Assembly: GCA_025526995.1 (NCBI GenBank)
Contig: JAHLKG010000008.1
Coordinates: forward strand, 1-64,000
Length of the DNA stretch: 64,000 bases
Source of the DNA: Powellomyces hirtus
Lineage: Eukaryota > Chytridiomycota > Chytridiomycetes > Spizellomycetales > Powellomycetaceae
Reading direction: 5' to 3'
How positions within the stretch are numbered: position 1 is the stretch's first letter; the number at the start of each line of letters is the position of its first letter. The position numbers were made by a program, and so were the translations under genes. The notes under the pieces are model-generated. The model was not told the DNA's origin. It made no database searches and saw only the letters and a list, made by a program, of their open reading frames with translations. Of the stretch, positions 2,816 to 32,051 are shown one piece after another.

Positions 2816-3056
2816 TGTTGGTCTAAGAGTATCTGAGTAGATAGTTGAGGAAGCTTTAGGGTAGTTGACTGAGCAGAACGACGAAGTAACTTAATCCCGC
2901 TCTATTGGAGAAAAAGAGAAAAGTCCCCACCGATATATTAAGTATGTGAGGAAAAACTACTTATATCGGAGTTGATCACGTGGGTTCACGTGATTGCGTA
3001 ATACGCCCTGCGATGGCGCAGTTGTGACTCGATGACAGAGTCTGTACGTGCTAACA
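2816..3056 (-). repeat. copia-1 3' LTR (left copy), 241 bp
   Basis: It starts TGTTGGTC and ends GTGCTAACA, with TG...CA termini. It differs from the right LTR by about eight substitutions and two single-base indels. A C5 run at 3057-3061 (G5 on the element's strand) is the polypurine tract. The LTR holds two CACGTG hexamers in an inverted arrangement at about 2973-2993. Confidence 0.92.
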
Positions 3057-3172
3057 CCCCCACTCAGACCTGTCAGTCTGGCTGTGAGAGAGTTACTCTA
3101 TCTACTTTTACTACACACTCCCGCGCACACCCCCAAACACCCCCATTTATTACATTGTTAAGAATACGAGGA

Positions 3173-3862
3173 ATGGCTAGTGTACGTCTATGAGATCCGC
3201 GCAAATGAGGCGTAAGCTCTAACTATGTGCCGGTGTAGTTGTCAGGTTCGGGCAAAGCAAAGCAGACGGCAAGAAAGACGGGACCGCCGGTAGCCGCTCC
3301 TGCGACGACCACAGCTCCTGCTGTGCCGTCGTCAGTAGTGCCCTCTGCGCCACAGGGAGGCGCACCCGCTGCGGGGTTGTCCCGAGCGGAGATTCAAACG
3401 ATGTTGGCGGCGCATGCCCGACAGTTCCACCGCAAGGACCGTCAAGGGGTCCTTGAACGTCACATCGAGCAGGCGAAAGACCGGGTGAAGGACCGGGCGA
3501 GGTCTGGTACGCCTCTTGGTCGCGCACGGGCGACCGGGACGCTTGATGGACTGAGGTCCATACTGGAGGACCGGCGGAGCCGGAAGCTGGCGTTTGGGAA
3601 GGGCAAGGATACAGCCCAGGCGAAGAAGAGGACTGTGGACAAGAAGTCTGCAGCGGAGGTGAAGAGGATGTGGGACATTCTGGAGCGGGAGGCTCCATAT
3701 AATGATGAGGAAGAGGAGGAGGAGGAGGGGGCAGCTGAGGAGTTGGAGGGACCATCGGGTTCTTCAAGCCGACGCTCACCCTCAAGCGATGAGGATGATG
3801 GAGGAGGGGCAGGCCCATCCTCCTTGGGGGGCATTGCTTCGGGTTCCACAATTGCGGTGTAG
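3173..3862 (+). CDS. Spliced antisense gene inside copia-1: 208-residue charged protein
   Basis: This gene runs against the retrotransposon, between RNase H and the 3' LTR. The long open frame has no ATG, and a TAG lies directly upstream of its first codon. A GT-AG intron at 3180-3245 (66 bp, donor GTGTAC, branch-like CTAAC, acceptor TCAG) joins a 7-base exon, ATGGCTA at 3173-3179, in frame to 3246-3862. The product is about 208 residues. It has an Ala/Pro/Thr-rich N-terminus, a helical, Arg/Lys-rich middle with many RDR/KDR pairs, and an acidic run of Glu followed by a Ser/Asp/Gly tail. Composition suggests a nuclear nucleic-acid-binding protein. The same exon, intron and length recur in copia-2 (22808-23497). 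The opposite frame is also open here as an extension of pol, but that reading is Pro/Ser/His-rich and looks non-functional. Function unknown. Confidence 0.65.
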
Positions 3863-5906
3863 ATGCCCAGGTAAGCCAGTGTTGTGAGGAATGCTCCTGA
3901 CATTCAGCGAGTAACACTTGGGTTCGGTGTGCTTCCATAGACGCGCCCTCATTGCGTATTCTCTCGTCAAATATATGAGTCCCATTCGTAATCCTCAGGA
4001 CAGTGTCCTTATGTTTCACAGTGGAAAAAGGCTTCGTAAAGATGTCCGCCAGTTGATCATCCGTATTGGTGTCGATGATTTCGATAATTTGCTTTGCGAA
4101 CGAATCGCGTATAGCGTGGTACCGAACGTCAATGTGTTTGGTGCGTTGGTTGATAGCCTTAGACTGAATCAAGGCCCCGGCGCTCTGATTATCAACATGG
4201 AGAGGGACCGGTCGAGATTTGTAATCCAGTTGAGGTCCCAAAACTTGCGCCAAGAGTTGGCGTAGCCATTTGGCTTCGTTGTGGCCGGTACTGGCAGCTA
4301 TATACTCCGCTTCGGTTGTACTTTGGGCGGTGCACTTCTGTTTGCTGCTTTTCCACAGAACAGGAAACCCATTGTAAAGGGCCAAAATACCTGTAGTGGA
4401 CGTCCGGTCAGTGAGTTCTCCTGAATAATCCGCATCCGTGAATACGCGTAGGCCACGCGGATCATTGTGTTCGGATGTGAACTTGAGGGCATAATTGCGG
4501 GTACCCTTCAAATAGCGGAAAATGCGTGTAACATTGTTCCAGTCGGAGTTGGTAGGTGCGGTGACGCGGCGCGCAACGTAACCGACTGCAGTGGCGATAT
4601 CCCATCGCCATGTGATGAAGGCCCAAGTGAGGACCCCCACTGCTTCCTGATACATTTTCAGATTCGTGAATGGGGTCGAATCCTCCGGTTGTTGGTTACG
4701 CGCTGACACGGTGTACGGAGTGGAGACAGGATGGCAGTCGCTCATGCCGAGTTGTTCGAGAGCGTCGTCGATGTACTTGACATTTGAGATTTCGAGGGTA
4801 TGAACAGGAGAATCGAAGTCATATTTGTAGACAAGACCAAGGTGACTGGTTACGCGACCTTGTTCCGTAAACTTAAACTTCGAATGTAGCTCCATTTTGC
4901 TGTTCGCCAGTATCTCCGAATCCTTTGCTGCAATATGCAGATCATCGACAAAGACGAGAATAAGGACCAAGTTGTCGTTCGACGGAGGTGTACGGTCGTC
5001 TGTCGCGTACTTGAAAAAGATACACGGGCATACAGAAACCGCTTCGTAGCCGAGCTTCAACAGTGCAGTCTTCAAAGTCTCATACCAAAGAAGAGGTGAT
5101 TGTTTCAGGCCGTAGAGAGCTTTCAGTAGCTTCAGGACCCATTCGCCTTTGGGGTGATCCGGATCTTCGAATCCCTCAAACTGCTCGATATAGATATCCT
5201 TATCAATATCACTGTTAAGGAAGGCGGTGACAGCGTCCATACTGTGGATGTCCAGCCCGTGCTGAACACAATACGCCAAGAAGAGGCGTAGCGCTGTGAA
5301 TGGTAGCGTAGGTGAGTATGTATCACCAAAATCGCGACCGGGTTGTTGAGAGAAGCCTTGAGCCACTGCTCTGGCTTTGAACTTGTTAAAGGTGCCATCG
5401 GGATTGACCTTCGTTCGAAAGACCCATTTTGTTCCGATCATGCGCTTGTTACGTGGGCGCTTGATGAGCTCCCATGTACCGTTGTCGACTAGGGATTGGT
5501 ACTCAATGCGTGCAGCTTTGAGAAATTCCTCCTTCTGAGGGGTTTTCCTCGCTTTGTTCCATGTCATGGCGTCTTCGTTGATCGTCGCTTGAGTCCGCGC
5601 GCGAGCGGCGTATGCAGCGATGGGGTCATTTCGTCGTGTGCCGACATCGTACGCAGCGACTCGATTCTCCCAGTCACCCAATGCGGCAGTATCGAGTAGT
5701 GAAAGTCGGGACTCCCACGTAGGTTCTTGATATCCCTCCCACTTAACCAAGTACTCTTTCGTGTGCACCTTACTGCGGCGCTCGTCAATAATCGCCTCCA
5801 CGGCGTATTCGACGTCGTCCTCCTGACTCTCCTCATCTAGGAGGTCAAGATGTGCTGGATCCTGCTGATATTTGGGTTCGAGTCCCAAGTCTTCTTTGAA
5901 GATCAC
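3863..5906 (-). pseudogene. copia-1 pol: chromodomain, reverse transcriptase, RNase H
   Basis: This is the C-terminal half of the copia polyprotein, separated from its upstream half by an in-frame TGA at 5910-5912. Within the open frame that starts at 5906, residues about 33-80 form a chromodomain (YLVKWEGY then TWES). The copia reverse transcriptase follows (KWVFRTKVNPDG, AFLNSDI, and the FVDD catalytic box, here FVDDLHIA). It ends in RNase H (FTDADYSG and TTEAEYIA) and the copia tail ADIFTKPF. In copia-2 the stop codon is CGA, so a C-to-T change explains it. The frame stays open to 3219, through the antisense gene. The natural pol end is probably near 3900, where similarity to copia pol ends. 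Confidence 0.88.
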
Positions 5907-5909
5907 GTC

Positions 5910-7703
5910 TCATGACACTTCGACCTTGTCAGTGATAGGATCCCAAATCAGATACCCCTTGGTACCTGAGGGTTGAGCATAGCCTACCAAGTAAGCCTTC
6001 TTTGCTCGATTTCCCATTTTATTGCGTCCTTTGCTTGTTAGAACGGAATACGTCACGCAACCGATACGCCTAAGATGGCCGACATCAGGACGCCGGCCAA
6101 ACAGTATTTCATGTGGCGTCTTCTTGTTGATGCGGTTGTACGTAAGGGAATAGATGTATCCAGCCGATACCAGTAAAGCAGGCCAGAATCTTCGAGGTAG
6201 TTTCGTATCCGCGAAGGTAGCGCGGACCCTGTCCAGCGCCGTGCGATGCCATCGTTCGGCAATCCGGTTTTGCTGACTCGAATAGGCCGCGGACTTTTGA
6301 TGAGTGATACCATTCTTCAATAGGTACTCTAGAACCTCGCCAAAGTATTTGGTGCCTCGATCCGTACGTAGGATCTTGATTTGTCGGTCAGTCTGTTTCT
6401 CAATCCAAGCCTTGTAGATGAGAAACTTGTCGAGTATGACTGCTGAGTCCTTTGAAGGAATAGGGAAAACAGTCACGTATCTGGATGTGTGTTCAATAAC
6501 CTCCAGCGAATAGCGTGATCCTTCGTAACCAGGGAGACGAAATGGTCCCTGTAGGTCTGAATGAATCAGCTCACAGATCTCCCTGGCTTCAGCGTTACCA
6601 AGGGAGAATGGAAGACGAGCGGCTTTTCCTAACACGCAGGCTTCACAATCTTTGAAGTCACTTAGATCCCCCACTACAGACCAACCGTCCGTAACCGATG
6701 CCATCTTCTCCAGGACGTGTTTGCCAACGTGTCCAAGACGAGCATGAGAGAGTGTAGGAGAGACTTCGACAGTGCATGCTTCTGAATCTGACCACAGACT
6801 TTCAGACAGCAGCGTACCTTGCAGGTAATACGCGTTGTTGCGGCGTACGCCTTTGGTGATATCTTTGCCGTCTCGCGTGAAAATGACGTCACCATTTGAC
6901 TTGAAGAGCACGTCAACGCCTTGGTTGTTGCATTTCGCTACCGATACAAGATCTCGTCGTAATCCTGGCACATGCAGGACTCCGCCCAACTCGAGCGGAT
7001 TCGGATAGTCGTTAACTTCGACTTGTACCGTACCTCGAACTGTAGAGGGTAGTGATGTTTTGTCAGCAAGCATAACAGCTCTGACATCACTGTACACGGT
7101 TGAGTGATCCAAGGTCGCTTTGTGAGGTGTCATGTGGTCCGTAGCGCCAGAATCGATGAGGGCTTCATACGGTTGTTCTTGGCGGACCCAGACGTGTAAT
7201 GCTTCCACAGCATTTGTGCTAACAGCACCATCAGACGACTGCTTCGTCTTGTTCTTCTCCATCTCGGATTTGAACTTCTTTAACACTTCACACTCCTGTG
7301 TTCGGTGTTTAGGGTCTCCACAGGCCCAACAACCCGACTTTTGGGTTTGGCCTTTGTTTGATGGAGTAGATTCCTTGTCCTTCTTGCCGTTCGTTGACTT
7401 CTCCCCGTGGGTCTTGCCACCCTTTTGTTTCTTAGAGGCGTCAGTGTGTGCGCCACCTGGTCGCGTATCCGTTGTGGTCCCGCTAGGTTTCTTAGCCATG
7501 TTGGCGGCGATCCTGGATGCAGCGGCCTGTAAACTGCTCAAATCAGTTATGTTTTCTTCATTAGCCTGAACCAAGGCCGCAAGGACTGGTGTTAGCGCGT
7601 TGATGAAGTAATCCTGAAGGACGTAATCCGGTGTTTTCGGCAGAGAAAATGCCAGCATGTTAAACTGAGTAATGTACTCATCCATGCGGCCTTTTGGACG
7701 CAA
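5910..7703 (-). CDS. copia-1 gag C-terminus, protease and integrase
   Basis: Residue numbers are for the 597-residue open frame. A CCHC zinc knuckle lies at 125-138 (CWACG to TQEC) for RNA binding. The aspartic protease motif DSGA is at 184. The integrase HHCC zinc site uses His320, His325, Cys353 and Cys356, and the catalytic triad is Asp383, Asp448 and Glu483, the last two 35 apart as in retroviral integrases. The frame has no ATG at its left boundary and continues upstream from the gag N-terminus through the frame break near 7870. It ends at the TGA at 5910-5912. All integrase and protease catalytic residues are intact in this copy. Confidence 0.88.
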   Translation of the reverse strand: MRPKGRMDEYITQFNMLAFSLPKTPDYVLQDYFINALTPVLAALVQANEENITDLSSLQAAASRIAANMAKKPSGTTTDTRPGGAHTDASKKQKGGKTHGEKSTNGKKDKESTPSNKGQTQKSGCWACGDPKHRTQECEVLKKFKSEMEKNKTKQSSDGAVSTNAVEALHVWVRQEQPYEALIDSGATDHMTPHKATLDHSTVYSDVRAVMLADKTSLPSTVRGTVQVEVNDYPNPLELGGVLHVPGLRRDLVSVAKCNNQGVDVLFKSNGDVIFTRDGKDITKGVRRNNAYYLQGTLLSESLWSDSEACTVEVSPTLSHARLGHVGKHVLEKMASVTDGWSVVGDLSDFKDCEACVLGKAARLPFSLGNAEAREICELIHSDLQGPFRLPGYEGSRYSLEVIEHTSRYVTVFPIPSKDSAVILDKFLIYKAWIEKQTDRQIKILRTDRGTKYFGEVLEYLLKNGITHQKSAAYSSQQNRIAERWHRTALDRVRATFADTKLPRRFWPALLVSAGYIYSLTYNRINKKTPHEILFGRRPDVGHLRRIGCVTYSVLTSKGRNKMGNRAKKAYLVGYAQPSGTKGYLIWDPITDKVEVS

Positions 7704-8746
7704 TTCCCGTAGTTTCTGCAGCGAATCCCTAGTGTGGTTTCGTGGTGCAAACCGCGCCAGAAGGGCGGACCTAAGACCGGTGTTGGTTCTTCCTGAATCA
7801 ACGTCTTCGAAGTCATGCCACGTCGTAATTTCGTTCCTTTTACTTGGGGAGAGTGACTGCCACCAAGTGTATGCCCTGTGAGTTTCGCAGCCACAAAATC
7901 TACGAGAAACTCGGGCGGAACTATTTCGTACTTCACAACTGTCTCAATCTTGTCGATGAACGTTCGAAGTTTGACCATATTGGATTCTCCATTGTAGGAC
8001 CCAATATCTTTCAGTGTTCCATCCACGAAAGCCTTCGCACCTCGACTGTCGACGATTTTAGTCGTCATGCTGTGTATGCTCGATGTCGGTGATGTAGGAT
8101 GGCGTTCGAATGGAGAACGTTGGTATTCCTGTTGAGCTCCAATCTCCTGATTGTACTCTGTCCACGGTGCAGCGAACACGTCGTTGGGAGTGGGTGATGG
8201 TGTGTGTACGCACCGTTGCGCCGTACGTACCTGAGGGTTGACCGGGATGTTCACATCCTGATCCATGCGCCATTTCATTTGGAGCATTTCCGTTAGTTGG
8301 GCTAGAGAATTCTCAAGCCGATCTATCCTATCCACGTCCGCCTCACGCGGGCGGACATGCACGGTGTTCGCTGATTCCCCACTTGGGAATGCCGCTGGAG
8401 TACTGTAGTTGATCGTTCTGTGATCATCTGTACTGCTTGATAGGGGACGGGTATCGACCTTGCCATTGTGTCGGTCGATGTTTCGGGTACGCCCTTCCAA
8501 TGCGTCGTCGCCCTCGTTGGCGTTGACGCTCAAAGGCGTTGGCTCTGCCGGTGTATCGTTACCGGCAGATTTCCCTCCATTGTCTGGTGATGTCCATTCA
8601 CCAGGCACTCGTGCGCTCTTCTTAGCGGCACGTTCTACGGCTCGTTGTAGCGTATTGGACCCTGGGGTCTGCCGACCCGTTAGGCGTCTTAACATACTAC
8701 GAGTGTACCGGGGGCTCGTTCCGTTGCCTACCATTTCAGGGCTCAT
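7592..8746 (-). CDS. copia-1 gag N-terminal part
   Basis: The frame starts at the ATG inside the primer-binding site (8744-8746) and gives a basic, Ser/Thr/Pro-rich capsid N-terminus. Similarity to the copia gag (UBN2-like helical segment) continues in this frame to about 7870. There the sensible reading (WWQSLSPSKRN, then WHDFEDV) moves to the -1 frame, the one used by the following gag-protease-integrase ORF. The remaining codons to 7592 are out-of-frame. Copia-2 has the same break at the equivalent position, so it predates the split of the two copies or is a recoding site. No canonical slippery heptamer is visible. Confidence 0.75.
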   Translation of the reverse strand: MSPEMVGNGTSPRYTRSMLRRLTGRQTPGSNTLQRAVERAAKKSARVPGEWTSPDNGGKSAGNDTPAEPTPLSVNANEGDDALEGRTRNIDRHNGKVDTRPLSSSTDDHRTINYSTPAAFPSGESANTVHVRPREADVDRIDRLENSLAQLTEMLQMKWRMDQDVNIPVNPQVRTAQRCVHTPSPTPNDVFAAPWTEYNQEIGAQQEYQRSPFERHPTSPTSSIHSMTTKIVDSRGAKAFVDGTLKDIGSYNGESNMVKLRTFIDKIETVVKYEIVPPEFLVDFVAAKLTGHTLGGSHSPQVKGTKLRRGMTSKTLIQEEPTPVLGPPFWRGLHHETTLGIRCRNYGNCVQKAAWMSTLLSLTCWHFLCRKHRITSFRITSSTR

Positions 8747-8750
8747 AACC
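8739..8750 (-). promoter_or_regulatory. copia-1 primer-binding site (half initiator tRNA-Met type)
   Basis: On the element's strand the sequence directly inside the 5' LTR is GGTTATGAGCCC. This complements GGGCTCATAACC, the anticodon stem-loop of initiator tRNA-Met, and not a tRNA 3' end. The Drosophila copia and yeast Ty5 elements use this half-tRNA priming. The ATG inside it is also the first codon of gag. Confidence 0.8.
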
Positions 8751-8989
8751 TGTTGGTCTGAGAGTATCTGAGTAGATGATTGAGGAAGCTTTAGGGTAGT
8801 TGACTGAGCAGAACAACAAAGTAACTTAATCCCGCTCTATCGGAGAAAAAGAGAAAAGTCCCACCGATATATTAAGTATGTAAGGAAAACTACTTATATC
8901 GGAGTTGATCACGTGGGTTCACGTGATCGCGTAATACGCCCTGCGATGGCGCAGTTGTGACTCGATGACAGAGTCTGTACGTGCTAACA
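8751..8989 (-). repeat. copia-1 5' LTR (right copy), 239 bp
   Basis: It matches 2816-3056 with TG...CA ends. It lies directly beside the primer-binding site at 8739-8750. The paired CACGTG motif is kept near 8906-8926. On its other side it abuts, at 8990, the interior of an unrelated open reading frame, which it truncates. Confidence 0.92.
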
Positions 8990-9798
8990 AGATCGCTCAA
9001 GGGATACAAGAGTATCTAGCACGGTGCAGGTCGACGAAGAGCGTCCAGAGTATTAAGATGAAGATCCAGGAATGGGAAAAGAAGTTTCGGGAGGCCGAGG
9101 CGTATCTAGCAACGACGGGCAAGGGCTTGACATCGATTGAAGAGAAGATGGGGATATCAGCGATCAAGGAGAAGGTGCTGTCGAAGTTCAAGTACTACAA
9201 GACGTTGGAAGGTTATTTTGGCAACAGGGCAGGGAACCGCCCTCTGTTCCTTAGCCAGGTGGGAGGTGTCGGAGACGAGAGCTTGCAACAGGGCTCGCTT
9301 CTAGCAGACAAGCTCAGTCAGTGATCTGAGAGGGATCGCTCTAGCAGCTCCAACTCCTGCGCGGAGATTCCGGCAGCCCTGAGCGATGAAAGCGAGCCAG
9401 AGGATGTCCTTCCTGTTGACGATGATTTTTCAAGCCGGACACCTCTCGTGACACGGAAGCATAGTCGATCAAGCACAGACGTCGGCCTCTCATCTGCTAG
9501 CAAGCAAAGGGCTGACCTCTCATCTGTCATCGAGGCCAACATGAGTGAGAAGAACGCTCAAAAGGCGGCAAAGGACCGCGCAAAGGCTCAGAAAGATATG
9601 GCAAAGCTGGAACTTCAGAACAAGGAGTTTGAGCTGAGGAAGAGGGAGTTTGAGGCTCGGATGGAATCGGAGAGGCTAGCTAGGCAGGAGGTGGCTGATG
9701 CCCATCAACGTCAAGTTGAGCTGCTGCGCTTGCAGTTGGAGCTCGCTCGTGCCCAGTCTCAGAGATCTTTGGCATCCCAAAACAACGAGGCCATCTAG
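8990..9798 (+). pseudogene. Truncated Myb/SANT-like DNA-binding protein with C-terminal coiled coil
   Basis: The frame is open from the copia LTR boundary. The first 110 residues are helical, with spaced Trp, Phe and Tyr residues (IQEWEKKFREAE, KFKYYKTLEGYF) typical of Myb/trihelix-like proteins and of the second ORF of PIF/Harbinger transposons. An in-frame TGA lies at 9322-9324, and the same frame continues through a Ser-rich linker to a long Glu/Lys/Arg/Gln coiled coil (about residues 180-265) ending at TAG 9796-9798. The N-terminus is missing, cut off by copia-1, and it is not found on the other side of that element. The stop could be a CGA-to-TGA change. The assignment to a family is tentative. 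Confidence 0.5.
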
Positions 9799-17344: not shown

Positions 17345-17678
17345 AAATCCGAGCTGTTGACTGAGCCCCCGTCGCTGGCCGCCTCGTCTCTGGACCCTTC
17401 GGTGATCTCTACAGGGGCGGCGAACGTCCTAAGCTCACCGGTTTTGCTTTTACTTGCTGGGCACCCACGGGCGTAATGCCCCTTGCCCCCGCAGTTGAAA
17501 CATTCGTTGCGCTCACGGGGTTCGTCGTAGATGGTGCGCTCACGGCGTGAAATCCCTTGGTAGTTGTCCATACCGCGTGTGGGGCGACTTGAGCCATAGG
17601 GGGTGTGGCGTCCCCTTTCTCGTGCTTGATAGTTCCCTCGATGTACCTGAGCCGGCTGGACAGCAGCGTACTGACGTC
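17329..17678 (-). pseudogene. gypsy-1 gag, 3' part (zinc knuckle)
   Basis: This is the downstream half of gag, separated from its start by the copia-2 insertion. It carries a CCHC knuckle (CFNCGGKGHYARGC) in an Arg/Gly-rich basic context. It ends at TGA 17329-17331, overlapping the start of pol in the -1 frame. Removing copia-2 and one ACGTC copy restores frame with 23858-24719. Confidence 0.88.
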
Positions 17679-17917
17679 TGTTAGCACGTACAGACTCTGT
17701 CATTGAGTCATAACTGCGCCATCGCAGGGCGCATCACGCGATCACGTGAACCCACGTGATTAACTCCGATATAAGTAGTTTTCCTTCCATACTTAATATA
17801 TCGGTGGGACTTTTCTCTTTTTCTCCAATAGAGCGGGATTACGTTACTTCGTTGTTCTGCTCAGGCAACTACCCTAAAGCTTCCTCAATCATCTACTCAG
17901 ATACTCTCAGACCAACA
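17679..17917 (+). repeat. copia-2 5' LTR, 239 bp
   Basis: Runs from TGTTAGCACG to GACCAACA. It has the inverted pair of CACGTG motifs. The primer-binding site follows directly. Confidence 0.93.
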
Positions 17918-17929
17918 GGTTATGAGCCC
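17918..17929 (+). promoter_or_regulatory. copia-2 primer-binding site (half initiator tRNA-Met type)
   Basis: GGTTATGAGCCC, identical to copia-1. It complements the anticodon arm of initiator tRNA-Met, and its internal ATG is the gag start codon at 17922-17924. Confidence 0.8.
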
Positions 17930-18959
17930 TGAAATGGTAGGCAACGAAACGAGCCCCCGGTACACTCGTCGTATGTTAAGACGCCTAACGGGTCGGCAGA
18001 CCCCAGGGTCCAATACGCTACAACAAGCCGTAGAACGTGCAGCAAAGAAAAGCGCACGAGTGCCTGGTGAATGGACATCACCAGACAATGGAGGGAAATC
18101 TGCCGGTAACGATACACTGGCAGAGCCAACGCCTTTAAGTGTTGACGCCAACGAGGGCGACGACGCATTGGAAGGGCGTACCCGAAACATCGACCGACGC
18201 GATGGCAAGGTCGATACCCGTCCCCTATCAAGCAGTACAGATGATCACAGAACGATCAACTACAGTACTCCAGCGGCATTCCCAAGTAGGGAATCAGCGA
18301 ACACCGTGCATGTCCGCCCGCGTGAGGCGGACGTGGATAGGATAGATAGGCTGGAGAATTCTCTAGCCCAACTAACGGAAATGCTCCAAATGAAATGGCG
18401 CATGGATCAGGATGTGAACATCCCGATCAACCTTCAGGTACATACGGCGCAACGGCGCGTACGCACACCATCACCCACTCGCAACGACGGGTTCGCTGCA
18501 CCGTGGACAGAGTACAATCAGGAGATTGGAGCTCAACAGGAATACCAACGTTCTCCAATCGAACGCCGCCCTACATCACCGACATCGAGCATACACAGCG
18601 TGACGACTAAAATCGTCGACAGTCGAGGTGCGAAGGCTTTCGTGGATGGAACGCTGAAAGATATTGGGTCCTACAATGGAGAATCCAATATGGTCAAACT
18701 TCGAACGTTCATCGACAAGATTGAGACAGTTGTGAAGTACGAAATAGTTCCGCCCGAGTTTCTCGTAGATTTTGTGGCTGCGAAACTCACAGGGCATACA
18801 CTTGGTGGCAGTCACTCTCCCCAAGTAAAAGGAACGAAATTACGACGTGGCATGACTTCGAAGACGTTGATTCAGGAAGAACCAACACTGGTCTTAGGTC
18901 CGCCCTTCTGGCGCGCTTTGCGCCACGAAACCACACAAGAGATTCGCTGCAGAAACTAA
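17922..18959 (+). CDS. copia-2 gag N-terminal part
   Basis: 345 codons from the ATG inside the primer site to a TAA at 18957-18959. The sequence is close to copia-1 gag, with scattered substitutions. The meaningful reading leaves this frame near 18800 (at the codons for LTGH) for the -1 frame, which encodes WWQSLSPSKRN and runs into the next ORF. The break is at the same place as in copia-1. Confidence 0.75.
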   Translation: MSPEMVGNETSPRYTRRMLRRLTGRQTPGSNTLQQAVERAAKKSARVPGEWTSPDNGGKSAGNDTLAEPTPLSVDANEGDDALEGRTRNIDRRDGKVDTRPLSSSTDDHRTINYSTPAAFPSRESANTVHVRPREADVDRIDRLENSLAQLTEMLQMKWRMDQDVNIPINLQVHTAQRRVRTPSPTRNDGFAAPWTEYNQEIGAQQEYQRSPIERRPTSPTSSIHSVTTKIVDSRGAKAFVDGTLKDIGSYNGESNMVKLRTFIDKIETVVKYEIVPPEFLVDFVAAKLTGHTLGGSHSPQVKGTKLRRGMTSKTLIQEEPTLVLGPPFWRALRHETTQEIRCRN

Positions 18960-18964
18960 GGGAA

Positions 18965-21900
18965 TTGCGTCCAAAAGGCCGCATGGATGAGTACATCACT
19001 CAGTTTAACATGCTGGCATTTTCTCTGCCGAAGACACCGGATTACGTCCTTCAGGATTACTTCATCAACGCGCTAACACCATACCTTTCGGCCTTGGTTC
19101 AGGCTAATGAAGAAAACTCAACTGATTTGAGCAGTTTACAGGCCGCTGCATCCAGGATCGCCGCCAACATGGCTAAGAAACCTAGCGGGACCTCAACGGA
19201 TACGCGACCAGGTGCCGCACACACTGACGCCTCTAAGAAACAAAAGGGTGGCAAGAACCACGGGGAGAAGTCAACGAACAGCAAGAAGGACAAGGAATCT
19301 ACTCCATCAAACAAAGGTCAACAATCACAAAAGTCGGGTTGTTGGGCCTGTGGAGACCCTAAACACCAAACACAGGAGTGCGAAGTGTTAAAGAAGTTCA
19401 AATCCGAGATGGAGAAGAACAAGACGAAGCAGTCGTCTGATGGTGCTGTTAGCACAAATGCTGTGGAAGCATTACACGTCTGGGTCCGCCAAGAACAACC
19501 GTATGAAGCCCTCATCGACTCTGGCGCTACGGATTACATGACACCTCACAAAGCGACCTTGGATCACTCAACCGTGTACAGTGATGTCAGAGCTGTTATG
19601 CTTGCTGACAAAACATCACTACCCTCTACAGTTCGAGGTACGGTACGAGTCGAAGTTAACGACTATCCGAATCCGCTCGAGTTGGGTGGAGTCCTGCATG
19701 TGCCAGGATTACGACGAGATCTCGTATCGGTAGCGAAATGCAACAACCAAGGCGTTGACGTGCTCTTCAAGTCGAATGGTGACGTCATTTTCACGCGAGA
19801 CGGCAAAGATATCACCAAAGGCGTACGCCGCAACAACGCGTATTACCTGCAAGGTACGCTGCTGTCTGAAAGTCTGTGGTCAGATTCAGAAGCATGCACT
19901 GTCGAAGTCTCTCCTACACTCGCTCATGCTCGTCTTGGACACGTTGGCAAACACGTCCTGGAGAAGATGGCATTGGTTACGGACGGTTGGTCTGTAGTGG
20001 GGGATCTAAGTGACTTCAAAGATTGTGAAGCCTGCGTGTTAGGAAAAGCCGCTCGTCTTCCATTCTCCCTTGGTAACGCTGAAGCCAGGGAGATCTGTGA
20101 GCTGATTCATTCAGGCCTACAGGGACCATTTCGTCTCCCTGGTTACAAAGGATCACGCTATTTGCTGGAGTTTATTGAACACACATCCAGATACGTGACT
20201 GTTTTCCCTATTCCTTCAAAGGACTCAGCAGTCATACTCGACAAGTTTCTCATCTACAAGGCTTGGATTGAGAAACAGACTGACCGACAAATCAAGATCC
20301 TACGTACGGATCGAGGCACCAAATACTTTGGCAAGGTTCTAGAGTACCTATTGAAGAATGGTATCACTCATCAAAAGTCCGCGGCCTATTCGAGTCAGCA
20401 AAACCGGATTGCCAAACGATGGCATCGCACGGCGCTGGACAGGGTCCGCGCTACCTTCGCGGATACGAAACTACCTCGAAGATTCTGGCCTGCTTTACTG
20501 GTATCGGCTGGGTACATCTATTCCCTTACGTACAACCGCATCAACAAGAAGACGCCGCATGAAATACTGTTTGGCCGGCGTCCTGATGTCGGCCATCTTA
20601 GGCGTATCGGTTGCGTGACGTATTCCGTTCTAACAAGCAAAGGACGCAATAAAATGGGAAATCGAGCAAAGAAGGCTTACTTGGTAGGCTATGCTCAACC
20701 CTCAGGTACCAAGGGGTATCTGATTTGGGATCCTATCACTGACAAGGTCGAAGTGTCACGAGACGTGATCTTCAAAGAAGACTTGGGACTCGAACCCAAA
20801 TATCAGCAGGATCCAGCACATCTTGACCTCCTAGATGAGGAGAGTCAGGAGGATGACGTCGAATACACCGTGGGGGAGATTATCGACGAGCGCCACAGTA
20901 AGGCGCACACGAAAGAATACTTGGTTAAGTGGGAGGGATATCAAGAACCTACGTGGGAGTCCCGACTCTCATTACTCGATACTATCGCATTGGATGACTG
21001 GGAGAATCGAGTAGCCGCATACGATGTCGCCACACGACGAAATGACCCCATCGCTGCATACGCCGCTCGCGCGCGGACTCAAGCAACGATCAACGAAGAC
21101 GCCATGACATGGAAGCAAGCGATGAAAACCCCTCAGAAGGAGGAATTTCTCAAAGCTGCACGCATTGAGTACCAATCCCTAGTCGACAACGGTACATGGG
21201 AGCTCACCAAGCGCCCACGTAACAAGCGCGTGATCGGAACAACATGGGTCTTTCGAACGAAGGTCAATCCCGATGGCACCTTTAACAAGTTCAAAGCCAG
21301 AGCAGTGGCTCAACGCTTCTCTCAACAACCCGGTCGCGATTTTGGTGATACATACTCACCTACGCTACCATTCACAGCGCTACGCCTCTTCTTGGCGTAT
21401 TGTGTTCAGCACGGGCTGGACATCCACAGTATGGACGCTGTCACCGCCTTCCTTAACAGTGATATTGATAAGGATATCTATATCGAGCAGTTTGAGGGAT
21501 TCGAAGATCCGGATCACCCCAAAGGCGAATGGGTCCTGAAGCTACTGAAAGCTCTCTACGGCCTGAAACAATCACCTCTTCTTTGGTATGAGACCTTGAA
21601 GACTGCACTGTTGAAGCTCGGCTACGAAGCGGTTTCTGTATGCCCGTGTATCTTTTTCAAGTACGCGACAGACGACCGTACACCTCCGTCGAACAACAAC
21701 TTGGTCCTTATTCTCGTATTCGTCGACGATCTGCTCATTGCAGCGAAGGATCCGGAGATTATGGCGACCAGCAAGATGGAGCTACATTCGAAGTTCAAGT
21801 TTACGGAACAAGGTTGCGTAACCAGTCACCTTGGTCTCGTCTACAAATATGACTTTGACTCTGCTGTTCGTACCCTCGAAATCTCAAATGTCAAGTACAT

Positions 21901-21994
21901 CGACGACGCTCTTGCACAATTCGGCATGAGCGACTGCCACCCTGTCTCCACTCCGTACGCCGTGTCAGCGCATAACCAACAACCGGAGGATTGA
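18965..21994 (+). pseudogene. copia-2 gag C-terminus, protease, integrase, chromodomain and RT
   Basis: The 1,009-codon frame contains the CCHC knuckle (CWACG to TQEC), protease DSGA, integrase HHCC site, a chromodomain (YLVKWEGY, TWES) and the RT with FVDDLLIA. Compared with copia-1, the first integrase catalytic Asp is Gly (HSGLQGPF) and the catalytic Glu is Lys (IAKRWHRT), so this integrase should be inactive. The CGA codon at the site of the copia-1 stop is intact here, so integrase, chromodomain and RT are continuous, which confirms their order. The frame ends at TGA 21992-21994, created by loss of one C that copia-1 keeps. Confidence 0.9.
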
Positions 21995-22807
21995 CCCCAT
22001 TCACGAATCTGAAAATGTATCAGGAAGCAGTGGGGGTCCTCACTTGGGCCTCCATCACATGGCGATGGGATATCGCCACTGCAGTCGGTTATGTTGCGCG
22101 ACGCGTGGCAGCACCTACCAACTCCGACTGGAACAATGTTAAGCGCATTTTCCGCTATCTGAAGGGTACTCGCGATTATGCCCTCAAGTTCACATCCGAA
22201 CAAAATGATCCGCGTGGCTTACACGTATTCACGGAAGCGGATTATGCAGGAGAACTGACCGACCGGACGTCCACTACAGGCATTTTGGCCCTTTACAATG
22301 GGTTTCCTGTTCTGTGGAAAAGCAGCAAGCAGAAGTGCACCGCCCAAAGTACGACTGAAGCGGAGTATATAGCTGCCAGTACCGGCCACAACGAAGCCAA
22401 ATGGCTACGCCAACTCTTGGCGGAAGTTTTGGGACCTCAACCGGATTACAAATCTCGACCGGTCCCTCTACATGTCGATAATCAGAGCGCCGGGGCCTTG
22501 ATCCAGTCTAAGGCTATCAACCAACGCACCAAACACATCGACGTTCGGTACCACGCTATACGCAATTCGTTCGCGAAGCAAATTATCGAAATCATTGACA
22601 CCAATACGGACGATCAACTGGCGGACATCTTTACGAAGCCGTTTCCCACTGTGAAACATAAGGACACTGTCCTGAGGATTACGAATGGGACTCATATATT
22701 TGATGAACGCATACGCAATGAGGGCGCGCCTACGGAAGCACACCAAGCTCAAGTGTTACTCGCTGAATGTCAGGAGCATTCCTCACAACACTGGCTTACC
22801 TGGGCAT
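21991..22807 (+). pseudogene. copia-2 pol C-terminus (end of RT, RNase H)
   Basis: Continues pol in the next frame after the one-base deletion. It encodes the RT thumb region (MYQEAVGVLTWA), RNase H (FTEADYAGEL, where copia-1 has FTDADYSGEL; TTEAEYIAAS) and ADIFTKPF. In RNase H the first catalytic Asp position reads Glu. The frame stays open to 23451 across the antisense gene, as in copia-1. I place the functional end near 22750 and treat the rest as overlap. Confidence 0.85.
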
Positions 22808-23497
22808 CTACACCGCAATTGTGGAACCCGAAGCAATGCCCCCCAAGGAGGATGGGCCTGCCCCTCCTCCATCATCCTCATCGCTTGAGGGTGAGCGTCG
22901 GCTTGAAGAACCCGATGGTCCCTCCAACTCCTCAGCTGCCCCCTCCTCCTCCTCCTCTTCCTCATCATTATATGGAGCCTCCCGCTCCAGAATGTCCCAC
23001 ATCCTCTTCACCTCCGCTGCAGACTTCTTGTCCACAGTCCTCTTCTTCACCTGGGCTGTATCCTTGCCCTTCCCAACCGCCAGCTTCCGGCTCCGCCGGT
23101 CCTCCAGTATGGACCTCAGTCCATCAAGCGTCCCGGTCGCCCGTGCGCGACCAAGAGGCGTACCAGACCTTGCCCGGTCCTTCACCCGGTCTTTCGCCTG
23201 CTCGATGTGACGTTCAAGGACCCCTTGACGGTCCTTGCAGTGGAACTGTCGGGCATGCGCCGCCAACATCGTTTGAATCTCCGCTCGGGACAACCCCGCA
23301 GCGGGTGCGCCTCCCTGTGGCGCAGAGGGCACTACTGACGACGGCACAGCAGGAGCTGTGGTCGTCGCAGGAGCGGCTACCGGCGGTCCCGTCTTTCTTG
23401 CCGTCTGCTTTGCTTTGCCCGAACCTGACAACTACACCGGCACATAGTTAGAGCTTACGCCTCATTTGCGCGGATCTCATAGACGTACACTAGCCAT
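22808..23497 (-). CDS. Spliced antisense gene inside copia-2: 208-residue charged protein
   Basis: Second copy of the copia antisense gene. Exon 1 is 23491-23497 (ATGGCTA), the intron is 23425-23490 (66 bp), and exon 2 is 23424-22808. Exon 1, the intron and the 116 bases up to the LTR are identical to copia-1. Exon 2 differs at four positions in 617, giving three amino-acid changes (Arg to Cys, Phe to Val, Ala to Val) and one silent change, with no stop or shift. This holds although the surrounding pol of this copy is broken and its integrase is dead. The protein has a basic helical core and a Glu-rich acidic segment. Confidence 0.65.
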
Positions 23498-23613
23498 TCC
23501 TCGTATTCTTAACAATGTAATAAATGGGGGTGTTTGGGGGTGTGCGCGGGAGTGTGTAGTAAAAGTAGATAGAGTAACTCTCTCACAGCCAGACTGACAG
23601 GTCTGAGTGGGGG

Positions 23614-23852
23614 TGTTAGCACGTACAGACTCTGTCATCGAGTCATAACTGCACCATCGCAGGGCGCATCACGCGATCACGTGAACCCACGTGATCAACT
23701 CCGATATAAGTAGTTTTCCTTCCATACTTAATATATCGGTGGGACTTTTCTCTTTTTCTCCAATAGAGCGGGATTAAGTTACTTCGTTGTTCTGCTCAGT
23801 CAACTACCCTAAAGCTTCCTCAATCATCTACTCAGATACTCTCAGACCAACG
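23614..23852 (+). repeat. copia-2 3' LTR, 239 bp
   Basis: Preceded by the polypurine tract GAGTGGGGG at 23605-23613. It ends GACCAAC plus G, then ACGTC, the second target-duplication copy. Confidence 0.93.
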
Positions 23853-24719
23853 ACGTCTCCTTCCGTCGGGGGTTACCTGCGCGACATCGTCCGCATAGCC
23901 TCGAATCCTGTAGCATAGTAGAGCTTTGTTCTGTAGCTCGGTGATCGGGATCTCGACGCCATTATTCCTCATGATTGCGGCATAGCAGTGGTCCCGAATG
24001 CGCTGGCCGACATGGTTGGTCAAGAATCCCGTCAAGAAATATTCACGCTCTTGCCTTGGGGTAAGCCGCTCCTTGTCGTCGAGCGTCGCGATCTGGGCCC
24101 GAAGGGTATTGAACTTGGCGATATACTCTGATATACTATTAGTGAAAACCAGCCGCTTCATCTTTGCTTCTGTGGTGTTTTGTAAGTTGGCGGGGTAGAA
24201 GCGGATGCGGAGGATCCTTGTGAATTCTTCCAATGTCGTGGGCTGGTCGCCGGCATCTCTGAGCATTTGCCACCATTTGTCGGCGGTTTCCTTGAGGTAC
24301 TCCGAGATGTGGTCGACGTCCCGGTGATCCGTCCTGAAGTCGGTTGCCTCAAGGTAGCGCGTGTGGACCTTCAAGAACTCATCGACCTTCGACACCATTT
24401 CTTCACTGTTCCCTTTTCCGTCGAAGTGTGTCAGCTGCTTGCGAAGGTTCTCGCGGCGTTCCTTCTCGGCTTGCATTCGTGCGCGGTTTTCTTCCGCCAG
24501 GATGATGTCGACGTGCGGTGTTGCAACCGCTGGTTGGACTGGAGTCAGAATCCTTGAGAGAAGGGCTTCGAAGCGGGCCTCTCCCATTGCGATCTGTTCC
24601 TGCAGTAGGCATTGGGTCTCCGCCAATTGTGCAGCTAACATTGCGACGGGGTTGTCGGTCGGTGTGTTGACTTCGGGTTCTCCTACTGCCATTGGGCTGT
24701 TCCTGGTGCTACGTGCCAT
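23853..24719 (-). pseudogene. gypsy-1 gag, 5' part (capsid)
   Basis: Starting at ATG 24717-24719, this encodes about 288 residues. They include an N-terminal coiled segment (AQLAETQCLLQEQI), an Arg/Glu-rich linker, and the retrotransposon gag capsid domain (KWWQMLRD, LEEFTRILRIRFYP, EYIAKFNTLRAQI, EREYFLTGF). Its frame runs into copia-2 at the ACGTC duplication (23853-23857), after which it would read nonsense from the LTR. A decayed copy of the same gag segment is found at 36110-36355. Confidence 0.88.
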
Positions 24720-25330: not shown

Positions 25331-25494
25331 CGGCGTCTGTTGTTGTGAGTGACATCGCAAGAAGTGGGGGGACGTCACAACTTGGACAGGCGCACGCTGA
25401 GTCACTCTCCAGTTGCGTGCTGAGTGCTGAGTCACTCACTGTCGAAATTCCAGCGCTTGAAATTTGAACTATCGCAAAAGCCTGCTGTTTCACT

Positions 25495-25783
25495 CTCTCT
25501 CTCTCTCACACACTCCCTCGATCACTCTCACTCACTCACTCACTCAATCAATCAATCACTCACTCACTCACTCACTCAATCAATCAGTCACTCACTCACT
25601 CACTCACTCACTCACTCACTCACTCACTCACTCACTCACTCACTCATTCACTCACTCATTCAATCGCTCATTCAATCGCTCACTCAATCGCTGTCTCACT
25701 CACTCACTCACTCACTTACTCACTCACTCATTCAATCACTCATTCAATCACTCACTCAATCACTCATTCAATCACTCACTCAC
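25495..25783. repeat. (TCAC)n / TCAATCAC microsatellite
   Basis: A 290-base tract built from TCAC, TCAT and TCAATCAC units, preceded by a CT run. It ends two bases before the ATG at 25785. Because 12 bases are four codons, it leaves Leu-Thr-His-Ser and Ile-Gln-Ser frames open, but these are low-complexity artefacts. It may act as the leader of the gene that follows. Confidence 0.85.
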
Positions 25784-25784
25784 A

Positions 25785-26544
25785 ATGCTAGCTGCCGGTG
25801 CTCCCCCCCCTCCGCCCGACAACAACAACAACCAGCCAGAGCGCTCCTCCTCTCCTTTGCCCCCCCTTTCGCCCACCCGAGTCTCACCCGCCCCCACTGA
25901 ACCCCGCACATTCTGCGAGAGATGTGGGAAAGTCTGGGACGGAAAGTACTGGCGGTGGGGCAACCTAGGGTATGGGTTCCGGTGCAGAGGATGTGGGGTG
26001 AGGTGGCAGAAGCAGGACCTTTCGAAGAGGAAGGCTGGGGGGGGGCGGCGGGCCAAAGCCCGCCAAGGTGAGTGCGCCGAGGAAGTACAAGCAGCAAGTT
26101 AAGGCTGCCTCTCCTGTCCTCCTCGCATTGCAGGAGGACCCCTTGTCCAACCTGCGCATGCTAGCTAGCGTGGCCAGCCTGCTGCCTTTGCTGCCTGTCG
26201 ATGAAGACGAGGGGACCGACCTGCACGCAGCGCTAGCGCTGCGTGATTTTGTGAGGGAACACCAGGCCCCGCCGTCCGTCTTCGCTGCCGCAGCTGCACA
26301 CCTTCAGGGTGTGCGAGATGTGATCAGGAAGGAGAAGGATGAGGACGAGTACGAAGACGTTCCCTCCGATGAGGAGGAGGAAGAGGAGGAGGAGAGTGAG
26401 GGTGAGGGAGAGGAGCTGTTCGGGGAGGACGAAGAGCTCCCGTCAGAGGAAGAGCTCCCCACCCCCTTTGACCTGGAGTTCTTGGACGGCAGGGCAGAGG
26501 ATGACGATGAGAATGAGGACGAGAATGAGGATGAGGACGAGTAG
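25785..26544 (+). CDS. Small zinc-ribbon-like protein with acidic C-terminus (probable two-exon gene)
   Basis: ATG 25785 opens a frame with a Pro/Asn-rich N-terminus and a zinc-ribbon-like pair (CERCGKVW, then FRCRGCGVRW), followed by a basic stretch. At 26068 there is a strong donor (AAGGTGAGT). A second frame to 26544 encodes a helical segment (LASVASLLPLLPVDEDEG) and a very acidic Glu/Asp tail. An intron from 26068 to the AG just before CTAGCGTGG (about 26163) keeps frame, but another acceptor or a frame break cannot be excluded. The gene is convergent with the PIF/Harbinger transposase (stops 26544 and 26717), as expected for the two genes of such an element, although the partner is usually Myb-like. 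Role unknown. Confidence 0.5.
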
Positions 26545-31332: not shown

Positions 31333-32011
31333 TTATGGCGGGGAAGAACGATATAAAGGTAGCGGGGGTACATTTGTTGGTCCTGCTGCCGGGTACGTTC
31401 TCGCGGTCTCTTTATTGCGCTTGCGGCCCCGCGCAAGCGCCAACAGCAGGCACGCCCCCGACGCGAGGGCCGTGAAACCCACGACGGAACCAGCGACCAC
31501 CGCCGCCGTGGTCGCGGCTCTCGAGATCCCGGTCCCCTGCAGCGGCACGCTGGTGCCCGTGGGCTCGGTCGTGGACAAGTTCGACTTCGCGGTTGCAATT
31601 TTCGTGCTGCTCGAGGATGCGAGCGTGCTTGAGCTCGTGCTGTTTGCTGTGGACTGGACGCTCGTGCTCGAGCTGGTCGACGAAGCACAACTCGACATGG
31701 AAGAGGTGGACATAACCGTGCTACTGGTGCTCGTCGAAAATGTACTGGAAATCGAGAATGTAGAGCTGGTGGTTGTCGCGCTGCTGCGAGTATTCGATAA
31801 CGAAGAGCTAATTGGAACCGGGACTGAGCCGCTGCTGCTCGTGTCCGAGGCCCAAGAAATGGTCAAAGCCGGAACAAAGCTGCTGCTACTGGTGGTAGAG
31901 CCCAATGAGCCGATCGAGGTTGGGACTGCGCTGCTGCTGGGGATCGCTGAGAAAGAGTCGGTCGTGCTGCTACTCGTGGTCGAGGACAAAAAGTCGGTTG
32001 AGGTCAGGACC

Positions 32012-32051
<40 letters not shown>

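What the first reader, a model, noticed from the sequence alone, without database searches (positions are those of the whole stretch)
3173..3862. A spliced antisense gene carried inside a Ty1/copia element, in two copies
Both copia copies hold, between pol and the 3' LTR, a complete gene on the opposite strand: ATG exon of 7 bases, 66-bp intron with donor, CTAAC branch and acceptor, and a 205-codon second exon. The intron is required, because the long frame has no ATG and a stop lies just upstream. Antisense ORFs are known in a few plant LTR elements, but a spliced one of this kind in a fungal-type copia is, as far as I can tell, undescribed. It could encode a regulator or a copy-number control protein.
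Basis: partly seen in the sequence, partly recalled or inferred. Interest (0 to 1): 0.86.

Follow-up and report, generated by a model that had tools for sequence, protein, structure and literature searches.

The report
Spliced antisense gene in fungal retrotransposon
A jumping element in a fungus, probably a chytrid, carries on the opposite strand to its own genes a small two-exon gene of unknown function that selection has kept in many copies, much as the human retrovirus HTLV-1 carries a hidden gene on its back strand.

Summary
Aligning 80 copies (the 70 best of 127 genome matches plus 10 diverged ones) moves the splice sites: exon 1 is 9 nt (3173-3181), the intron 57 nt (3182-3238), exon 2 is 3239-3862. 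Exon 2 length is divisible by three in 77 of 80; intron lengths shift by 1-4 nt. The antisense frame is constrained (omega 0.55-0.58, internal branches 0.46; pol control 0.39/0.23), the overlapping pol frame is not (1.33-1.35). Of 85 pol matches scored, 77 have it in place. So it is a protein gene of the element, not a shadow ORF. Pol's reading frame runs through it. No domain and only two relatives were found. Best reading: an accessory, probably nuclear protein that helps the element, HBZ-like in layout only. Boldest: its N-terminus carries KQTARKT, a histone H3K9-like motif, in an element whose Pol has a chromodomain. Transcription is untested.

The parts
3173..3181 (+). exon 1 of the antisense gene, 9 nt (ATG GCT AGT here; ATGGCTAGG, M-A-R, is the commonest form)
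   Evidence: ATG in 80 of 80 aligned copies; ATGGCTAGG in 54 of 80
3182..3238 (+). intron, 57 nt; donor GTACGT, branch-like CTAAC 3219-3223, acceptor TAG
   Evidence: donor GTRNGT 77 and GT 79 of 80, CTAAC or CTAAT 79 of 80, AG 80 of 80; lengths 57/58/56/61 nt in 60/17/2/1 copies
3239..3862 (+). exon 2, 207 codons and TAG stop
   Evidence: length divisible by 3 in 77 of 80, full-length open frame in 62 of 80, omega 0.55-0.58
3219..5906 (-). 3' part of the pol reading frame (chromodomain, RT, RNase H region), running without a stop through the antisense exon
   Evidence: Pfam RVT_2 and Chromo; no residue constraint on this frame inside 3242-3859
5910..7703 (-). ORF with the protease-region, gag_pre-integrase and integrase matches
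   Evidence: Pfam Pol_BBD, gag_pre-integrs, rve, SH3_retrovirus
7592..8746 (-). first ORF of the element, gag by position, no Pfam match
2816..3056 (-). 3' LTR of element 1
8751..8989 (-). 5' LTR of element 1
   Evidence: 96% to the 3' LTR
22808..23431 (-). exon 2 of the antisense gene in element 2
   Evidence: 99% protein identity; locus L010
23432..23488 (-). intron in element 2
   Evidence: L010, same signals as element 1
23489..23497 (-). exon 1 in element 2
   Evidence: L010
17679..17917 (+). 5' LTR of element 2
23614..23852 (+). 3' LTR of element 2
   Evidence: 98% to the 5' LTR

Best explanation
A two-exon accessory gene on the antisense strand of one Ty1/copia family in a fungal, probably chytrid, genome. 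Shown here: the start codon, splice signals and protein frame are kept across the copies examined, the frame is under purifying selection, and the gene sits at the same place in nearly every scored copy that has pol. Inferred: it is transcribed from a promoter in or just inside the 3' LTR, back over pol; its small intron can be removed from that antisense RNA only, so retrotransposition through the sense RNA cannot erase it; the product, a basic protein of about 210 residues (pI 9.7 in copy L011) with a Pro/Ala/Thr-rich N-terminus, a basic helical-looking centre and an acidic, Ser-rich tail, works in the nucleus on nucleic acid or chromatin in favour of the element (expression, integration or escape from silencing).
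For: Gene anatomy in 80 aligned copies: ATG 80, donor GTRNGT 77, branch CTAAY 79, AG 80. Exon 2 lengths divisible by three in 77 of 80; the 20 intron length changes are all of 1 or 4 nt. Codon test with kind of change and CpG context kept: N 460, S 424 against 577 and 298 expected, omega 0.56; internal branches 0.46 with 1 stop gained against 5.8 expected. Four other frames of the same DNA 1.35-1.47; the fifth, a minus frame that shares wobble positions, 0.61, has two or three stops inside exon 2 in most copies and no constraint at 3866-3920 (0.98). Pol control 3993-4676: 0.39, internal 0.23. 77 of 85 pol matches have the gene 3' of pol on the opposite strand, 64 at exactly 131 nt; 3 of the other 8 have a match nearby on the same strand. 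The 70 loci fetched with flanks all align to the element on both sides of the gene. Two other copia families of the genome end pol directly after RNase H, with no antisense ORF over 97 codons downstream in the stretch fetched. The exon occurs in a Powellomyces hirtus protein model (87%, up to 90%).
Against: No transcript was seen; there are no RNA data here. No domain or structural match. Selection is weaker than on pol, and near neutral for residues in the acidic tail (3661-3859: 0.89). The wobble-sharing minus frame (0.61, internal 0.52) is not far behind the antisense frame by omega alone. The intron changes less per site (1.04) than exon 2 (1.45), which splicing alone does not explain. The pol frame is open over exon 2 in 64 of 80 copies, whereas synonymous reshuffling of the window copy leaves it open in 134 of 5000 trials and shuffling codon order in 5 of 5000, so a translated pol tail cannot be dismissed. 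Nuclear action is inferred from composition only.
Confidence: 0.62

Rival explanations
1. Shadow ORF: a long frame that is open by base composition opposite a coding pol, with no protein made.
For: The pol frame on the other strand is open too; long overlapping ORFs on both strands are common in this window.
Against: The constraint lies on the antisense frame (0.55-0.58), not on pol's (1.33-1.35); codon-multiple lengths in 77 of 80 and kept splice signals.
Confidence: 0.04
2. Regulatory antisense RNA (copy-number control or siRNA source), the protein being incidental; the reader's 'copy-number control' in its RNA form.
For: Antisense transcripts that may limit elements are discussed in PMC7264820 (parts 1-2 of 3 read); the intron is well conserved.
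Against: Third-position excess and codon-multiple lengths point to a translated product. A trans-acting self-inhibitor gives no advantage to the copy that encodes it (reasoning), yet constraint is seen on internal branches.
Confidence: 0.13
3. A captured host gene or gene piece carried by the element.
For: A spliced gene with its own start inside an element is what capture of a gene in reverse would look like.
Against: No homologue outside the element was found: all 70 loci fetched with flanks are element copies (the other matches were not all checked), and word-based searches of 5.8 billion proteins gave two relatives (8000 candidates scored). Exon 1 is not from an H3 gene: in two of the three canonical host H3 loci the match runs from residue 1 to 38 or 41 in one exon.
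Confidence: 0.07
4. Pol is the coding strand here too: a C-terminal tail of Pol is the functional product and the antisense frame its shadow.
For: Pol frame open over exon 2 in 64 of 80 copies, which reshuffling seldom gives; open frames up to 1874 aa at other copies.
Against: No residue constraint on that frame in 3242-3859 (omega 1.35, internal 1.47) or in 3866-3920 (1.12), against 0.48 at 3906-3989 and 0.39 at 3993-4676.
Confidence: 0.05

Closest known systems
Antisense additional ORFs between pol and 3' LTR (aORF-3R) of plant elements: Grande gene23, RIRE2, Retand (TRP28), PvRetro13
   Same: Antisense, next to the 3' LTR, in most copies of a family, no clear similarity to other proteins, some nuclear (PMC7264820, parts 1-2 of 3 read; PMC11963269, passages)
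   Different: Retand is a gypsy lineage (PMC11963269); the others I recall as gypsy too. Here a Ty1/copia element of a fungus, a short region, a tiny first exon with an intron, and overlap with the pol frame. No TRP28 match.
brtn of the Boty elements of Botrytis cinerea
   Same: Fungal LTR element with an additional antisense gene (named in PMC7264820; title in the reference list of PMC8365987, where it is assigned to BcGypsy1)
   Different: Gypsy, not copia; the original paper was not read, so sequence and exon structure were not compared.
HBZ of HTLV-1
   Same: Spliced antisense gene at the 3' end of a retroelement with a very short first coding exon (four residues in the SP1 form, PMC1459196 passages); about 206 residues (recalled)
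   Different: HBZ exon 1 lies in the LTR and its intron is 1.4 kb (PMC1459196 passages); here exon 1 starts 117 nt inside the LTR edge and the intron is 57 nt; no bZIP match.
CoDi-A copia elements of diatoms
   Same: Ty1/copia with a chromodomain at the C-terminus of integrase (PMC2774666 passages)
   Different: Host; no antisense gene mentioned in the passages seen; no phylogeny was made.

Membership tests
Ty1/copia LTR retrotransposon | integrase before reverse transcriptase in pol, copia-type RVT_2, LTRs | tested here: met
   rve in 5910-7703 upstream of RVT_2 in 3219-5906 on the - strand (the rve score is just under its Pfam cut-off, 31.5 against 32.6); LTR pairs
antisense aORF-3R | antisense ORF next to the 3' LTR | tested here: met
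   but it overlaps an unconstrained extension of the pol frame
antisense aORF-3R | present in most copies of the family with conservation like other element proteins | tested here: met
   77 of 85 scored pol matches; internal omega 0.46 against 0.23 for pol, so weaker
antisense aORF-3R | antisense transcript | not testable with these tools
   no RNA data
Retand TRP28 proteins | Transposase_28 domain PF04195 | tested here: not met
   no such match for P0002 at E up to 1
HBZ-like antisense retroviral proteins | bZIP domain | tested here: not met
   Pfam search of P0002: best match E 0.058 to an unrelated family, below cut-off
HBZ-like antisense retroviral proteins | spliced antisense mRNA starting in the 3' LTR | not testable with these tools
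   splice signals kept; start site unknown
CoDi-A copia elements | chromodomain at the integrase C-terminus | tested here: met
   PF00385 at residues 34-73 of P0001, above cut-off; HP1 chain 1kna E 4.4e-6
CoDi-A copia elements | falls in the CoDi-A clade | not tested
   no tree was built
histone H3 mimic | H3K9-like linear motif in the N-terminal tail, kept by selection | tested here: inconclusive
   KQTARKT in 64, ARKT in 73, neither in 7 of 80; N 15, S 47 in codons 9-17; methylation or binding untested

The most novel reading that the evidence does not exclude
The antisense protein is a histone H3 tail mimic that partners the element's own chromodomain. Its N-terminus (MARLSGSGKAKQTARKTGPPVTAP in 44 of 80 copies) holds KQTARK, identical to H3 residues 4-9, and 9 further copies that lack KQTARKT keep ARKT. 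If the host H3K9 methyltransferase methylates it, the protein could dock on the Pol chromodomain (steering or releasing the integrase) or titrate the host's HP1-like readers away from the element: an anti-silencing factor hidden on the back strand.
Probability: 0.12. Interest if true: 0.88.

Novelty: new variant of a known kind. Interest (0 to 1): 0.64.

Why it matters
Antisense accessory genes of LTR elements have no settled function (PMC7264820). Here is one in a compact element, with 103 near full-length matches in a 29 Mb genome, measurable purifying selection on the frame as a whole, and an intron that only antisense transcription can remove, so its expression is easy to prove from spliced reads. 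It suggests that a spliced antisense gene, a layout known from deltaretroviruses, arose also in a copia element of a fungus, and it offers a testable motif (H3K9-like) beside a chromodomain polymerase.

Tried and rejected
Shadow of pol: rejected by frame-specific omega. Minus-strand ORF P0003 (3460-3903) as the true gene: its frame shares wobble positions with the antisense frame and scores 0.61 (internal 0.52), but it has two or three stops inside exon 2 in most copies, the segment outside P0003 (3242-3450) is as constrained on the + frame (0.55; 0.64 for the P0003 frame there), and its own start region 3866-3920 is not constrained (0.98). Origin of exon 1 from a host H3 gene: rejected. Relatives by profile: none beyond the two proteins already found. 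Pfam and PDB: nothing meaningful for the antisense protein. The last protein search, with Pol residues 1-500, gave 742 proteins, 120 listed, the best at 45-50% identity; three of the 120 listed carry PF00385. Their DNA could not be read, so whether they have an antisense gene is unknown. Other copia families: the RVT_2 scan scored 150 of 630 candidates and I read the 3' ends of only two families, so the rest of the genome's copia elements are unexamined. Host identity: P0005 (Powellomyces hirtus) matches this genome only in its retrotransposon part, so the genome is not shown to be that species; 'chytrid' rests on that one kinship.

Sample bias: the 80 copies are the 70 best-scoring of 127 matches plus 10 picked for divergence; L079 and L080 (frame broken) were dropped from the tree, and 5 identical copies were collapsed (73 distinct). 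The 62 of 80 intact count is therefore biased; by hand count, 77 of the 103 matches longer than 580 nt show no stop inside. One of the 77 copies with a length divisible by three (L080) is nevertheless frame-broken inside. Parsimony was used on a tree that may hold gene conversion; z-values are not probabilities. The pol control used 65 copies, 62 distinct.

Full report
What is there. The window lies in a 29.3 Mb genome (G000, contig C8). Two copies of one Ty1/copia family occupy 2816-8989 (- strand) and 17679-23852 (+ strand), with LTRs of about 240 nt. Pol has integrase before RVT_2 and a chromodomain between them. In both window copies gag-pol is split over three ORFs, while other copies in the genome have open frames up to 1874 aa at this place. 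The only named relative is a protein model from the chytrid Powellomyces hirtus; the non-element part of that protein is not found in this genome, so the host is called only a probable chytrid.

Copies. A protein search of the whole genome gives 127 matches, some of them pieces of one copy; 103 are longer than 580 nt. I fetched and aligned 80 copies: the 70 best matches and 10 chosen for divergence. Of 85 pol matches (85 of 740 candidates were scored), 77 have the antisense gene on their 3' side on the opposite strand, 64 of them at exactly 131 nt; of the other 8, 3 have a match nearby on the same strand. The 70 loci fetched with flanks align to the element on both sides of the gene. Two other copia families of the genome end pol directly after RNase H, with no antisense ORF over 97 codons in the downstream stretch fetched; further families were not read.

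Gene anatomy. In 80 copies: ATG 80; donor GTACGT 72, GTRNGT 77, GT 79; CTAAC or CTAAT 79; acceptor AG 80, GTAG in 77. With the corrected sites exon 1 is ATG GCT AGG (M-A-R) in 54 copies and AGT-ended in the two of the window; the intron is 57 nt; exon 2 continues in phase 0. Intron lengths are 57, 58, 56 and 61 in 60, 17, 2 and 1 copies; exon 2 lengths are multiples of three in 77 of 80. Read without splicing, the frame stops at the seventh codon in 78 of 80.

Selection. Changes were placed by parsimony on a tree of 73 distinct copies and compared with random placement of the same kinds of change at sites of the same base and CpG context. Antisense frame: N 460, S 424, expected 577 and 298; none of 200 random placements reached 424 (maximum 335). 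Internal branches 0.46, terminal 0.61. In the same DNA the pol frame gives 1.35, three other frames 1.39, 1.35 and 1.47, and the wobble-sharing minus frame 0.61. The same method on pol's 3993-4676 gives 0.39, internal 0.23, and 1.9 for the wrong frames tried there, so the method finds coding frames and the antisense gene is under real but weaker constraint. At 3866-3920 no frame is constrained (0.95-1.13). The acidic tail (3661-3859) is near neutral for residues (0.89) but gained 4 stops against 11.8 expected.

Overlap with pol. The pol frame runs on through exon 2 to a TAG at 3221-3219, within the complement of the intron's branch sequence. It is open over exon 2 in 64 of 80 copies. Residue constraint on pol is seen at 3906-3989 (0.48) and not at 3866-3920 (1.12), so it fades out in that stretch. 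Permuting synonymous codons of the window copy leaves this frame open in 134 of 5000 trials, shuffling codon order in 5 of 5000: its openness is unusual and unexplained.

The protein. 210 residues, pI 9.7 in copy L011; residues 1-50 hold no acidic residue there, the centre is basic, 161-210 has 13 acidic and 2 basic residues. No Pfam match above cut-off, one PDB match at E 0.4, two relatives by word-based searches of 5.8 billion proteins.

How it may work. An intron on the strand opposite to the genomic RNA cannot be lost by retrotransposition, so the gene would be expressed from integrated copies by antisense transcription, most simply from a promoter in or beside the 3' LTR (inferred). Constraint on internal branches means that lineages which kept the protein left more copies, which fits a helper better than a brake (inferred). 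Composition suggests a nuclear or nucleic-acid partner (inferred).

Histone-like motif. The N-terminus carries KQTARKT in 64 of 80 copies, ARKT in 73, neither in 7; codons 9-17 have 15 replacement and 47 silent changes. A six-residue word of H3 1-40 turns up in 67 of 20000 shuffles of the protein and in 256 of 100000 shuffles of residues 1-50, a five-residue word in 707 of 20000, before allowing for the many other motifs one might have noticed. The Pol chromodomain resembles those of HP1 (1kna E 4.4e-6), CDY proteins (best, 9e-7), Polycomb and others, so its target is not settled; Y, W and Y stand at what I recall as the methyl-lysine cage. The host has one Pre-SET match over cut-off, a mark of H3K9 methyltransferases (recalled). 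ARKS as a target motif and H3K9 mimicry are described in PMC10611923 (passages seen). Two paper searches on mimics and transposons listed no such protein of an element by title or abstract. This is a lead, not a result.

Known or new. Antisense additional genes next to the 3' LTR are known in plants and in the fungal element Boty (PMC7264820, parts 1-2 of 3; PMC8365987, passages), and a spliced antisense gene with a tiny first exon is known in HTLV-1 (PMC1459196, passages). My full-text searches of open papers listed no paper whose title or shown abstract reports a spliced antisense gene in a copia or fungal element; I read only the papers named here, and most subscription papers are not held. 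A chromodomain in copia was reported in 2009 for diatom CoDi-A elements and for no others (PMC2774666, passages); the fungal survey PMC3248453 (passages) speaks of chromodomains in gypsy. Verdict: new variant of a known kind.

Noticed in passing
5607-5834 (-), and about 20837 onward (+) in element 2: Chromodomain at the integrase/RT junction of a Ty1/copia Pol; PMC2774666 (2009, passages) knew this only in diatom CoDi-A elements. Three of 120 listed Pol relatives also bear PF00385.
   Followed up: partly
8739-8750 (-), just inside the 5' LTR: The putative primer binding site reads GGTTATGAGCCC, which I recall as the complement of the anticodon stem-loop of a methionine tRNA, as in the half-tRNA priming of Drosophila copia.
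   Followed up: no
2811-2815 / 8990-8994 and 17674-17678 / 23853-23857: Element 2 is flanked by the direct repeat ACGTC; element 1 shows no target duplication, as after recombination between copies.
   Followed up: no
P0005 (Powellomyces hirtus protein model): A public gene model joins a DNA polymerase piece (PF03175) to this antisense exon at its acceptor, perhaps an element inserted in or next to that gene.
   Followed up: partly
G000, e.g. L089: Another copia family has dozens of matches with the same score and open frames of 1361-1368 aa, which looks like a recent burst.
   Followed up: no
31333-34401 (-) / 31415-33631 (+): Long ORFs on both strands over repeats spaced 81, 87 and 144 nt.
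   Followed up: no
25460-25830: Dense tandem array with 8 and 12-nt spacing.
   Followed up: no
3182-3238 across 73 distinct copies: The intron changes less per site (1.04) than exon 2 (1.45) or the flanks (1.92, 2.13); unexplained.
   Followed up: no
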